Shown here one piece after another: positions 21,474 through 24,487 of a DNA stretch of 34,172 nt (its first letter is position 1; every line of letters begins with the position of its first letter). Under the pieces are notes generated by a model. It ran no database searches. It worked only from the letters and a program-made list of their open reading frames with translations, and had not been told where the DNA came from. The stretch spans positions 1 to 34,172 of the forward strand of contig JACPMJ010000030.1 of the NCBI GenBank assembly GCA_016186045.1, read 5' to 3'. A program made the translations under genes and the position numbers. The stretch comes from Candidatus Uhrbacteria bacterium. GTDB taxonomy: Bacteria; Patescibacteriota; Patescibacteriia; JACQRZ01.

Positions 21474-22019
21474 TTACTTGAAAAAATGTATCACTGATTG
21501 TATTTTTTCATCCACGGTAAGCAGTCCGGAGTTCAGCGTGAGATGATAACCGCTCGCATCGCGGAAATCATACGCATCGCCATAGAGTGTTTTTGCGGTG
21601 GCTACCTCTGTCTGTTCGCGTTGGGAAAGAAGATCGCGAACTTCTTCTAGTGTTTTCCCCTTGTACTTGTTTGTTTGTAGGGCGCGTTCCGCGCGTACGT
21701 TCATATCCGCGCTGATGAATACACGAAGGATCATGGGAAGTCCCTCCGCAATAATACCATGGCGCATATCACTGACGATAGTACCTTGCGCGAGAATATC
21801 TCTCGCGCGCGCATCCATGGCGCGGTTTTCTTCAAATGTCGTCGCACGATAATATTCTTCAAATGATAGTTCTTGATTTGGATAGAGTTTCTGCCATTGT
21901 TCGCGCCAGAGGTCTCCAAGTGAAAATGTAGGCCAGTCCAGAAGCGGGGCGAGCTGGCGCACTGCGGTTGATTTGCCGGAACCGGGCAGGCCGGAAAAAA
22001 GAATGCCGTTGTATTTCAT
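21474..22019 (-). CDS. P-loop nucleoside/cytidylate-kinase-like protein
   Basis: ILFSGLPGSGKSTAVRQLAPLLDWPTFSLGDLWREQ; overlaps elp3 stop by 4 nt. Confidence 0.8.
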   Translation of the reverse strand: MKYNGILFSGLPGSGKSTAVRQLAPLLDWPTFSLGDLWREQWQKLYPNQELSFEEYYRATTFEENRAMDARARDILAQGTIVSDMRHGIIAEGLPMILRVFISADMNVRAERALQTNKYKGKTLEEVRDLLSQREQTEVATAKTLYGDAYDFRDASGYHLTLNSGLLTVDEKIQSVIHFFK

Positions 22020-23704
22020 AAATCTTTTACCATATACGTACCTTCAAGACGATATCCCTGCTTTTTATAATACTCCCGTACGCCGATACCCGCAATAATC
22101 GCTACTCGCGCATATCCCGCATTTTTCGAGAGAGATTCGGCATAGGCAAGAAGTTTTTTTCCATATCCTTTATGCTGTGATGCGTCTTTTTCTCTTTTTG
22201 ATAAGGGAACGAGATGGCCATAGGTATGGAGTTCCCTGACAATACTCGCGTCTTTTAATTCTGGAAAAACAGGAAGGAGTTTTTCTACCTCCTGCGATGG
22301 AAAGCGGAGTCGGAGAAATGCATATAATATTTTTTCATCCTCACTCTCAAAACTCAAGAAATATTCCTTGCCCCCTGAGGCGTCGTAGATCCTCTCTGTA
22401 TAGCGGGGAGGCTGCGTATATGAGCGTAATGCTTCTTCTGAAATATGTCCTATCTCGCGACAGCGCAAACATCTGCATACGAGACCATCTTTTTTCATAC
22501 GCATAAGAATATCTTGTCGGAGGTTTGTCGTTTTATTTCCCTCAAGAATTTCATCCGAGGGAATATCTCGAATAACGCGGGCGATTCGTACATACGGGGG
22601 AGTAATCGCTTTAATTTCTGCAAGAAGTGCGAGAAGAGTTTTTGATGTGTATGGCGTATATCTTCCATCTTTGAGCCACCCAGAAAGCTCTGCCGTCTCC
22701 ATGACCACGCATGGATAGAGTTTGATGGTATCCGGCTGGAGGTCTTTGGATGTATAGACGTCTTTTGCGCAATGAAAATCTTTTTTTGGCGTTGATCCGG
22801 GCAGTCCTTGCATAAGATGAAAGTCCACCTTAAATCCAGCGTCTTTCAAGAGCTGGGTGCACTGTACGACGCGTTCTCGAGAATGGCCGCGCTTGATAAG
22901 GTCAAGCACGGCATTATCCGTATGTTGGACGCCAATTTCACCGCGCGTGCATCCAAGATCGCGAAGTCTTTTGAGCTCCTGCAGAGTAATAAAATCCGGT
23001 CGTGTCTCAATAGTAAGACCGATACATCTATGCGCGGCAGTTTCATTTTTTTTCTGTGCGGAAAAAAGTTTTTTTTCCGTCCAGTTCCTTTTTTCTTCCC
23101 CCTCAAAGCGGTTGTATGGATTTTTCAAAAGGGGAGAGGATTTCTTTTTTATTTTTGGGGAGTTCATCGCCCTAAAAACTTCTTTGATAAACCATTGTTG
23201 GTAGTCTTTGGGATAGGATGACCACGTGCCGCCCTTGATAATAATTTCAATTTTATCTGTCGCATGGCCGTTTCCCTCGAGTATGCGTATACGATACGCA
23301 ATCTGTTCATAGGGATCAAATTTCAGGGCTAACGCGCGCGCCGCCGCCGGCTCTGTGGCTACATAGCTTTTTGGCATACGATCTTCCGTAGGGCAGTAGA
23401 CACATCGTCCCGGACAGGGAAAGGGCATCGTGAGAAGCGTAAGAATAGAGACACCGGACTGAGAACGGATTTTTTTTACACAGAGAAGTTCCTCAATTTT
23501 TGTATTCTTTTCAATTTCTTTTGCGGCAATGAGTTTTCTATACGCGGCAAAAAGGAATGTATGAGAAAGAATGCCGCATCCGGCTTTTTTGCTTACTCTG
23601 CATTTGAGAGAGTGAAGTATTTTTTGAGAACTGTTGTCTCTTTTGACAAGTTCTTGTATGATCCATTCTGCGGGCCGGGTAAGATTTTTAGATTTTTTTT
23701 GCAT
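22016..23704 (-). CDS. elp3: Elp3-family radical SAM / GNAT tRNA wobble-uridine modification enzyme
   Basis: LTMPFPCPGRCVYCPTE (CxxxCxxC), KIEIIIKGGTWSSYP, GLTIETRPDFIT, C-terminal GKKLLAYAESLSKNAGYARVAIIAGIGVREYYKKQGYRLEGTYMVKDL. Confidence 0.93.
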   Translation of the reverse strand: MQKKSKNLTRPAEWIIQELVKRDNSSQKILHSLKCRVSKKAGCGILSHTFLFAAYRKLIAAKEIEKNTKIEELLCVKKIRSQSGVSILTLLTMPFPCPGRCVYCPTEDRMPKSYVATEPAAARALALKFDPYEQIAYRIRILEGNGHATDKIEIIIKGGTWSSYPKDYQQWFIKEVFRAMNSPKIKKKSSPLLKNPYNRFEGEEKRNWTEKKLFSAQKKNETAAHRCIGLTIETRPDFITLQELKRLRDLGCTRGEIGVQHTDNAVLDLIKRGHSRERVVQCTQLLKDAGFKVDFHLMQGLPGSTPKKDFHCAKDVYTSKDLQPDTIKLYPCVVMETAELSGWLKDGRYTPYTSKTLLALLAEIKAITPPYVRIARVIRDIPSDEILEGNKTTNLRQDILMRMKKDGLVCRCLRCREIGHISEEALRSYTQPPRYTERIYDASGGKEYFLSFESEDEKILYAFLRLRFPSQEVEKLLPVFPELKDASIVRELHTYGHLVPLSKREKDASQHKGYGKKLLAYAESLSKNAGYARVAIIAGIGVREYYKKQGYRLEGTYMVKDL

Positions 23705-23710
23705 AGGTAT

Positions 23711-24487
23711 ATGAATAGGGAGACTGCGGAAAAAATATGCGCACTGAACGCGCGGACATATGATCGGATCGCGCGCGCTTTTTCTGATACGCGCGCGCGG
23801 CCGTGGGATGAGTGCGCGCCGCTTAGTGGATATGTAAAAAACGAAATGAACGTTCTAGATGTTGGATGCGGAAACGGACGATTATTGATCTCATTTCCAC
23901 AAGATCTGCAGATTCAGTATACTGGTATCGATACGAGTATTGAGTTGATCCAGCGCGCGCAAGAGTTATATGCGAATGATCCGCGTCAGCCGGAATTTTT
24001 TACAAGAGATGTTCTTTCTCTTCAAACTATTCCAGAGATACAAAGCAGGCAGTATGATGTTGTATCCGCGATTGCCGTGCTTCACCATATCCCCAGCCGT
24101 GAGTTTCAAACGCAGGTACTTTTTTTGATGCGAGAGTTCTTGAAACCGGGCGGTATGCTTTTTTTGACAAACTGGAATCTTTTGCAAATAGACGCGCGTA
24201 AAAGCGTATGGCGCCATGCATGGGAGCGATGGCGTATGTCTGATGGTGAATGGCAAAAAAAATATGGTTTTTCAAGAAAAGAACTTGGGTTTCGCGACGG
24301 TATGACGACATGGAAAAGCGGCAGTCTCTCCGAACCGTTGTATTATTATAGCTTTACTTTGGGCGAATTGGCAAGACTTTGCCAGTCGGCTGGATTTTGT
24401 GTGAGAGAGGTGTATTATAGTAAGAAAGGAATGCGCGCGCACTGGTGGGATGGAAGGAACAGCGTGGTAGTCGCACAACGTGTATAG
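23711..24487 (+). CDS. SAM-dependent methyltransferase, Trm9/ALKBH8-like (start trimmed from 23561)
   Basis: TYDRIARAFSDTRARPW + VLDVGCGNGRLL + YDVVSAIAVLHHI + LKPGGMLFLTNWN + C-terminal YYYSFTLGELARLCQSAGF...VVVAQR. Confidence 0.8.
   Translation: MNRETAEKICALNARTYDRIARAFSDTRARPWDECAPLSGYVKNEMNVLDVGCGNGRLLISFPQDLQIQYTGIDTSIELIQRAQELYANDPRQPEFFTRDVLSLQTIPEIQSRQYDVVSAIAVLHHIPSREFQTQVLFLMREFLKPGGMLFLTNWNLLQIDARKSVWRHAWERWRMSDGEWQKKYGFSRKELGFRDGMTTWKSGSLSEPLYYYSFTLGELARLCQSAGFCVREVYYSKKGMRAHWWDGRNSVVVAQRV

What the first reader, a model, noticed from the sequence alone, without database searches (positions are those of the whole stretch)
22016..24487. Divergent elp3 - Trm9/ALKBH8-like pair: eukaryote-like wobble-uridine pathway in a bacterium
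Elp3 (radical SAM + GNAT) makes cm5U34 from U34. In eukaryotes, Trm9/ALKBH8 methylates cm5U to mcm5U. The adjacent methyltransferase has YDRIARAFSDTRARPW, closely matching the Trm9/ALKBH8 signature (Y..IA..FS.TR..PW), then VLDVGCGNG, AVLHHI and a Trm9-like C-terminal YYY...GELARLCQSAGF. Physical linkage of both steps supports a two-gene mcm5U pathway. Elp3 is sporadic in bacteria, and a linked Trm9-type partner is, to my knowledge, not a standard annotation.
Basis: partly seen in the sequence, partly recalled or inferred. Interest (0 to 1): 0.82.

Follow-up and report, generated by a model that had tools for sequence, protein, structure and literature searches.

The report
Bacterial Elp3–Trm9 wobble-uridine gene pair
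This small ultra-reduced bacterium and many of its relatives carry, back to back, the genes for the two-step tRNA wobble-uridine decoration known from eukaryotes (Elp3, then a Trm9-type methyltransferase), while the usual bacterial pathway is missing, so part of this bacterial phylum probably tunes its genetic decoding with the mcm5U chemistry known from eukaryotes.

Summary
Confirmed and strengthened. Window 22016-23704(-) is a full-length Elp3 (TIGR01211, 532 bits; cut-off 350). 23711-24487(+) is a Trm9-family methyltransferase: a profile made only from fungal TRM9 hits exactly one gene in this genome, this one (E 2.6e-14), and a bacteria-only profile has yeast Trm9 (5cm2) as its best PDB match. 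In 389 genomes of the phylum the methyltransferase occurs almost only with elp3 (112 of 113 genomes; Fisher p about 1e-65); 98 pairs are adjacent and all 98 are divergent, in 45 families. Chloroflexota also have the pair. The window genome lacks MnmE, MnmG and Trm112 but has MnmA, so U34 to cm5U to mcm5U (then mcm5s2U) is the likely route, without Trm112. Two canonical Trm9 features fail here: no Trm112, and Leu replaces the conserved Arg of the RYY motif. Linkage of archaeal elp3 and trm9 was published in 2008; a 2017 review found no bacterial homologs. Side finding: in elp3+/trm9- genomes of four families a lone asparagine-synthase domain sits beside elp3, a candidate for the unknown cm5U to ncm5U amidating enzyme. 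Chemistry is inferred, not shown.

The parts
22016..23704 (-). elp3: radical SAM / acetyltransferase enzyme, 562 aa; predicted to make cm5U34
   Evidence: TIGR01211 ELP3 532.5 bits (cut-off 350), residues 16-562; PDB best hits bacterial and archaeal Elp3, E 1e-116; C97-x3-C101-x2-C104 cluster motif, CRCLRC at 410, QHKGYG at 510, VREL at 489, REYY at 543
23711..24487 (+). trm9-like class I SAM methyltransferase, 258 aa; predicted cm5U34-tRNA carboxyl methyltransferase
   Evidence: fungal-only TRM9 profile: only hit in genome, E 2.6e-14; bacteria-only profile best PDB hit 5cm2 Trm9, 104.7 bits vs 86.2 for the next; confident AlphaFold2 model (pLDDT 95.3), 5cm2 the highest target-normalised TM-score (0.81) among the 50 listed PDB matches
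23705..23710 (.). 6-base gap between the two divergent start codons
   Evidence: sequence; a sigma-70-like site for the + gene lies at 23634-23662 inside elp3 (weak, 3 found vs 1.1 expected)
21474..22019 (-). small P-loop nucleotide kinase-like gene overlapping the elp3 stop by 4 bases (probable same transcript); role in the pathway not claimed
   Evidence: ORF; Cytidylate_kin2 8e-9, AAA_17 1e-7

Best explanation
The two genes encode consecutive steps of one wobble-uridine pathway. Elp3 uses a radical SAM reaction with an acetyl-CoA-derived acetyl/acetate group to turn U34 of certain tRNAs into 5-carboxymethyluridine (cm5U34). The Trm9-like enzyme then transfers a methyl group from SAM to that carboxylate, giving the methyl ester mcm5U34; MnmA, present elsewhere in the genome, can add 2-thiolation to give mcm5s2U34 in tRNAs of its usual specificity. 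This replaces the MnmE-MnmG (cmnm5U/mnm5U) system, which is absent. Unlike the eukaryotic enzyme the methyltransferase apparently works without Trm112. Shown here: gene identity, conserved divergent linkage, co-occurrence, absence of detectable MnmE/MnmG/Trm112. Inferred: substrate, products, tRNA set, Trm112-independence.
For: Elp3 identity. Trm9 identity by reciprocal profiles: the fungal-only TRM9 profile gives one match per genome in 85 of 389 genomes; the top 70 and 79 of all 85 are the gene of this family in an elp3+ genome, 69 of them directly beside elp3. The bacteria-only profile picks Trm9 first among all PDB chains. Trm9-specific columns: R28 in 105/105 relatives against 3/19 other methyltransferases of the same phylum, W155 104/105 against 0/19; N55, H125, D196, W201 likewise. 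Tree: bacterial, fungal and thermoplasmatal Trm9 together, apart from the other methyltransferases, SH-aLRT 98. Co-occurrence 112 of 113 genomes, p 1.7e-65; 98 adjacent pairs, all divergent, 45 families. Independent GTDB collection: elp3 found in 63 of the 80 fetched loci, 61 of them divergent (the printed tallies 64 and 62 include the window's own locus), five Chloroflexota among them. No MnmG or MnmE but MnmA in the window genome. Elp3 makes cm5U and Trm9 methylates it in yeast (PMC6367351, PMC5372719).
Against: No biochemistry or tRNA nucleoside analysis. The window protein and its nearest relatives (Leu in 9 of 105 relatives) lack the Arg of RYYH, a residue whose yeast counterpart (R241, mapped by motif) matters for tRNA affinity (PMC5372719). 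No Trm112 found, which the characterised eukaryotic Trm9/ABH8 enzymes need. 34 elp3+ genomes lack the methyltransferase, so cm5U has other fates in the phylum. The yeast trm9 mutant accumulates ncm5U, so the order of steps is debated even there (PMC3110198).
Confidence: 0.87

Rival explanations
1. The methyltransferase is an unrelated class I enzyme (UbiE/UbiG, BioC, CmoM or a small-molecule methyltransferase) that merely sits next to elp3 and shares the common Rossmann motifs.
For: General Pfam and NCBIfam methyltransferase models match; the fold search ranks several small-molecule methyltransferases above Trm9 by E-value.
Against: All NCBIfam matches are far under cut-off: UbiG 50 of 103, UbiE 34.5 of 216, CmoM 24 of 366, BioC 24 of 185 bits. 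Fungal-only TRM9 profile singles out this gene; bacteria-only profile picks Trm9 in PDB; Trm9-only residues; linkage to elp3 in 45 families.
Confidence: 0.04
2. It is Trm9-related and acts on Elp3's product, but the end product is not mcm5U: for instance the ester is only an intermediate later amidated or hydroxylated (ncm5U, mchm5U), or the window subclade with Leu in place of Arg prefers another carboxylate-bearing U34 derivative.
For: R-to-L change in the window's subclade; yeast data linking ncm5U and mcm5U routes (PMC3110198); elp3 loci with a different carboxylate-modifying gene in other genomes.
Against: No further candidate enzyme was found beside the pair in this genome; the adjacent genes are a nucleotide kinase-like protein and a DUF218 protein.
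Confidence: 0.08
3. The methyltransferase works on cm5U but needs an undetected Trm112-like zinc-knuckle protein, so it is a conventional Trm9-Trm112 pair after all (a variant of the best explanation rather than its opposite).
For: Trm112 homologs are short and hard to find; the genome is 91.6% complete.
Against: No match in the window genome among 11 scored candidates, while the same search rings in E. coli and four archaea; in 44 genomes of the class only 5 mostly weak matches, all inside long frames of 279-700 aa rather than a free protein of about 60 residues.
Confidence: 0.1

Closest known systems
Eukaryotic Trm9 (with Trm112) and the methyltransferase domain of ALKBH8, acting after Elongator/Elp3
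   Same: Same sequence family by reciprocal profiles and tree; same N-terminal YxxIAxxFSxTRxxPW block, GCGNG, IAVxHH, DxxxPW-like segment and C-terminal Asn; paired with Elp3
   Different: Bacterial; Elp3 alone instead of the six-subunit Elongator; no Trm112 detected; genes divergently linked; RYY Arg replaced by Leu in the window's subclade
Archaeal Elp3-Trm9 clusters (Sulfolobus solfataricus; Haloferax volcanii predictions, PMC2584109)
   Same: Linked elp3 and trm9 with Elp3 acting without Elongator; predicted, not proven, mcm5(s2)U
   Different: Bacterial hosts in at least two phyla, conserved divergent layout in 45 families, MnmA rather than Tuc1/Ncs6 as likely thiolase
Bacterial MnmE-MnmG (then MnmC) U34 pathway
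   Same: Modifies C5 of the same wobble uridine in split-box tRNAs
   Different: Different enzymes and chemistry (cmnm5U/mnm5U); MnmE and MnmG not found here, MnmG over cut-off in only 6 of 389 phylum genomes and none of those has an over-cut-off elp3
CmoM (mcmo5U34 carboxyl methyltransferase)
   Same: Also methylates a carboxylate on a wobble uridine in bacteria
   Different: 24 bits against a cut-off of 366; different family

Membership tests
Trm9 / ALKBH8-C methyltransferase family | Recognised best, and uniquely in its genome, by a profile of authentic TRM9 | tested here: met
   Fungal-only profile, single hit E 2.6e-14; reciprocal: bacteria-only profile top PDB hit 5cm2
Trm9 / ALKBH8-C methyltransferase family | N-terminal Y..IA..FS.TR..PW block with the Arg needed for tRNA affinity (yeast R29) | tested here: met
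   R28 in 105/105 bacterial relatives, all fungal and archaeal rows, 3/19 of other methyltransferases
Trm9 / ALKBH8-C methyltransferase family | Motif I GCGNG, HH after strand 4, C-terminal Asn (yeast H115, N271) | tested here: met
   N55 103/105, H126 104/105, N250 98/105; mapping to yeast numbers by motif
Canonical Trm9 catalytic set | RYY motif Arg/Tyr (yeast R241, Y243) | tested here: not met
   In the window protein Leu210 replaces Arg (Leu in 9 of 105 relatives); Arg in 95 of 105; Tyr kept. Met for the bacterial family at large, not for this member
Trm9 / ALKBH8-C methyltransferase family | Clusters with Trm9 and apart from other class I methyltransferases in a tree | tested here: met
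   SH-aLRT 98 for the split from 12 other methyltransferases of the phylum; quick tree, inner order weak
Canonical Trm9-Trm112 holoenzyme | Trm112 partner | tested here: not met
   PF03966 not found in the genome, controls ring; class-level hits only inside long frames
Trm9 activity | Methylates cm5U34 in tRNA to mcm5U34 | not testable with these tools
   needs enzyme assay or nucleoside LC-MS
Elp3 | Full-length match over the curated cut-off, radical SAM Cys motif and acetyl-CoA-binding motif | tested here: met
   532.5 bits, CPGRCVYC at 97, QHKGYG at 510
MnmE/MnmG pathway | mnmE and mnmG present | tested here: not met
   No MnmG match; MnmE model only hits GTPase domains, far below cut-off
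CmoM | NCBIfam NF008264 over cut-off | tested here: not met
   24.4 of 366 bits

The most novel reading that the evidence does not exclude
In these bacteria Elp3's cm5U34 is a branch point whose next step is set by an interchangeable neighbour gene: a Trm9-type methyltransferase (methyl ester, mcm5U) or, in some genomes lacking it, a free-standing asparagine-synthase-type ATP-dependent synthetase that amidates the same carboxylate to ncm5U, whose biosynthetic enzyme is unknown in yeast. The swap at the elp3 locus is seen in six genomes of four families (f41, f53, f63, f64); within f53 and f64 other members keep the trm9-like gene.
Probability: 0.4. Interest if true: 0.82.

Novelty: new variant of a known kind. 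Interest (0 to 1): 0.64.

Why it matters
It would put the eukaryotic-style mcm5U wobble pathway inside the bacterial domain, in a huge phylum of ultra-small bacteria that mostly lack MnmG of the standard system, and contradict the statement in a 2017 review that no bacterial homologs of the Trm112-dependent methyltransferases can be detected (PMC5372719). It offers a minimal two-gene, Trm112-free system in which cm5U to mcm5U can be reconstituted, bears on where eukaryotic and archaeal Trm9 came from, and points to a candidate for the missing ncm5U amidating enzyme.

Tried and rejected
Standard UbiE/UbiG/BioC/CmoM identity: rejected on cut-offs. The longer ORF start at 23561: rejected, homologues start at 23711. 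Fold comparison alone: uninformative about family because the class I fold is generic; Trm9 is rank 10 by E-value though it has the highest target-normalised TM-score of the 50 listed matches. MnmG/Elp3 mutual exclusion: direction as expected (0 of 6) but MnmG is too rare in the phylum for a strong test. Using the mixed profile A1, which contains two fungal rows, as evidence of Trm9 kinship would be circular (its PDB search is not relied on), so it was repeated with bacteria-only (A5) and fungal-only (A3) profiles. Literature for bacterial Trm9, mcm5U in bacteria, CPR tRNA modification: no paper found in the held library. Plasmid carriage: no match.

Full report
WHAT IS THERE. The window (34,172 bases, contig 27 of a 927,653-base, 91.6% complete genome) holds two divergent genes whose start codons are six bases apart. 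On the minus strand, 22016-23704, is a 562-residue Elp3 (TIGR01211, 532.5 bits against a cut-off of 350, covering residues 16-562) whose best solved relatives are bacterial and archaeal Elp3. It keeps the radical SAM cysteines (CPGRCVYC at 97), the CRCLRC segment that looks like the zinc site described for bacterial and archaeal Elp3 (PMC6367351), and the acetyl-CoA motif QHKGYG at 510. The elp3 stop overlaps a small kinase-like gene (21474-22019) by four bases. TGT, QueA and TruD genes lie elsewhere in the same window.

IS THE METHYLTRANSFERASE TRM9? With the single protein, Yarrowia lipolytica Trm9 (5cm2) is already the second PDB hit. All specific NCBIfam models (UbiG, UbiE, BioC, CmoM and others) score far below their cut-offs. 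Two non-circular profile tests were run. A profile made only of fungal TRM9 proteins (A3) was searched against 389 genomes of the phylum: 85 genomes had a match at E 1e-9, exactly one each; the top 70, and 79 of the 85, are the family found here in an elp3+ genome, 69 of them directly beside elp3; in the window genome the only match is this gene, E 2.6e-14. Conversely a profile made only of bacterial sequences (A5) ranks Trm9 first of all PDB chains, 104.7 bits against 86.2 for the next. Column by column, R28 is Arg in 105 of 105 relatives but in 3 of 19 other methyltransferases of the phylum; W155 is Trp in 104 of 105 against 0 of 19; N55, H125, D196 and W201 behave similarly. Yeast mutants R29A, H115A, R241A, Y243A and N271A lose tRNA affinity and activity (PMC5372719); by motif these correspond to R28, the HH pair at 125-126, residue 210, the Tyr pair after it, and N250. 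Most are kept in most of the bacterial family; the window protein and its nearest relatives have Leu at 210 where 95 of 105 have Arg. The AlphaFold2 model is confident (pLDDT 95.3, pTM 0.92); in the PDB fold search 5cm2 has the highest target-normalised TM-score (0.81) and is level with one other chain for highest identity (21%) among the 50 listed matches, but ranks tenth by E-value, as expected for a generic fold. A quick tree separates bacterial, fungal and thermoplasmatal Trm9 sequences from other methyltransferases of the phylum (SH-aLRT 98); the eukaryote-archaeon clade falls among the bacterial ones, but the inner order is weakly supported.

DOES IT GO WITH ELP3? In 389 evenly drawn genomes of the phylum, Elp3 exceeds its cut-off in 143. 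The Trm9-like gene was searched with a profile assembled by homology only (A1; search). Counting matches of 108 bits or more plus two lower-scoring adjacent ones, 113 genomes have it and 112 of these have elp3 (full or partial); at a stricter 120 bits, 105 of 106 genomes (Fisher p 1.7e-65 and 1.9e-59; genomes are related, so p-values overstate independence, but 55 families are involved). The one exception is a 78% complete genome. Ninety-eight pairs are adjacent (median 149 bases between matched parts) and every one is divergent; they span 45 families. In a second, named collection, elp3 was found in 63 of the 80 fetched loci, 61 of them with the same divergent layout (the tallies printed, include the window's own locus), across Uhrbacteria, Magasanikbacteria, Falkowbacteria, Gracilibacteria, Peregrinibacteria and others, and in five Chloroflexota loci, which group together in the tree. 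Two loci titled Lysobacteraceae and Ignavibacteriales look like misbinned Patescibacteria contigs (inference).

THE PATHWAY AROUND IT. The window genome has no MnmG match, no MnmE (only GTPase-domain matches far below cut-off), and has MnmA (384.9 bits). MnmG is over cut-off in only 6 of 389 phylum members, none of them with an over-cut-off elp3. Trm112 (PF03966) is not found in this genome although the same search rings in E. coli and four archaea; in 44 genomes of the class there are five matches, all inside frames of 279-700 aa, none a free Trm112. The best reading is therefore U34 to cm5U (Elp3) to mcm5U (Trm9-like, without Trm112), with MnmA adding s2U in its usual tRNAs. The enzyme identities, linkage and absences are shown; substrates, products and Trm112-independence are inferred from the known activities of Elp3 and Trm9 (PMC6367351, PMC13315578, PMC5372719).

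WHAT WAS KNOWN. Grosjean and colleagues in 2008 predicted ?mcm5s2U in Haloferax from Trm9 and Elp3 homologs and noted that elp3 and trm9 are clustered in Sulfolobus (PMC2584109). [quoted passage not shown] No paper on a bacterial Trm9 or on this pair turned up in the held library, though most subscription papers are not in it, and one automatic JGI annotation already names a related metagenome protein TRM9 (P0039). The finding is therefore a bacterial, apparently Trm112-free variant of a known two-step pathway, not a new kind of chemistry.

A LEAD FROM THE EXCEPTIONS. Thirty-four elp3+ genomes lack the Trm9-like gene. In six of them (G022, G059, G075, G102, G145, G217; families f41, f53, f63, f64) the gene beside elp3, or one gene away in G022, encodes a lone asparagine-synthase synthetase domain of about 260-285 residues (cut by a contig end in G059; PF00733, E 8e-29 to 8e-37 for the four tested; no glutaminase domain). 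A profile of it over the same 389 genomes finds strong free-standing members only at these elp3 loci (plus the other half of the split G059 gene); the four remaining hits are weaker and lie within long frames of 511-683 aa. Among elp3+ genomes the free-standing form is in 6 of 34 without and 0 of 112 with the Trm9-like gene (p 1e-4); the profile was built from elp3 neighbours, so linkage itself is partly by construction, and only about four lineages are involved. In f53 and f64 other members carry the Trm9-like gene instead. Such a domain activates a carboxylate with ATP and converts it to an amide; beside Elp3 the obvious carboxylate is cm5U, giving ncm5U, whose biosynthetic step is described as unknown (PMC6367351). 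If right, methyl ester and amide are alternative fates of the same Elp3 product, which in turn supports cm5U as the substrate of the Trm9-like gene. Other elp3+ families (13 genomes of f38, 4 of f33) have neither.

VERDICT. Main weaknesses: no biochemistry, the Arg-to-Leu change in this member, and an unresolved evolutionary origin.

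Noticed in passing
L107, L114, L115, L120, L124, L126 (genomes G022, G145, G217, G059, G102, G075): A lone asparagine-synthase synthetase domain (PF00733, no glutaminase) sits beside elp3 (one gene away in G022) in genomes that lack the Trm9-like gene: candidate cm5U to ncm5U amidating enzyme.
   Followed up: partly
Family f38 (e.g. L110, L111, L122) and f33 (L108, L109): elp3 present without Trm9-like or asparagine-synthase-like neighbour; in f38 a nucleoside diphosphate kinase-like gene is the first or second gene upstream of elp3. 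Fate of cm5U there unknown.
   Followed up: no
Phylum-wide: MnmG is over cut-off in only 6 of 389 Patescibacteria genomes, so most of the phylum, including the majority without Elp3, seems to lack the standard U34 C5 pathway.
   Followed up: partly
L002 (Lysobacteraceae bacterium isolate OTbin.42) and L017 (Ignavibacteriales bacterium SURF_28): Contigs assigned to Pseudomonadota and Ignavibacteriota carry a Patescibacteria-like elp3-trm9 pair; most likely misbinned.
   Followed up: no
L053, L056, L062, L074, L078: Chloroflexota (Anaerolineae and relatives) carry the same divergent elp3-trm9 pair (3.6 kb apart in L062); Chloroflexota include Dehalococcoides, whose Elp3 structure is known.
   Followed up: partly
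window 3287-4411, 5338-6762, 6778-7821: TGT, TruD and QueA homologs close together on the minus strand: part of a queuosine route and another tRNA modification gene near the pair.
   Followed up: no
window 21474-22019: Cytidylate-kinase-like P-loop gene overlapping the elp3 stop by 4 bases; probably co-transcribed.
   Followed up: no
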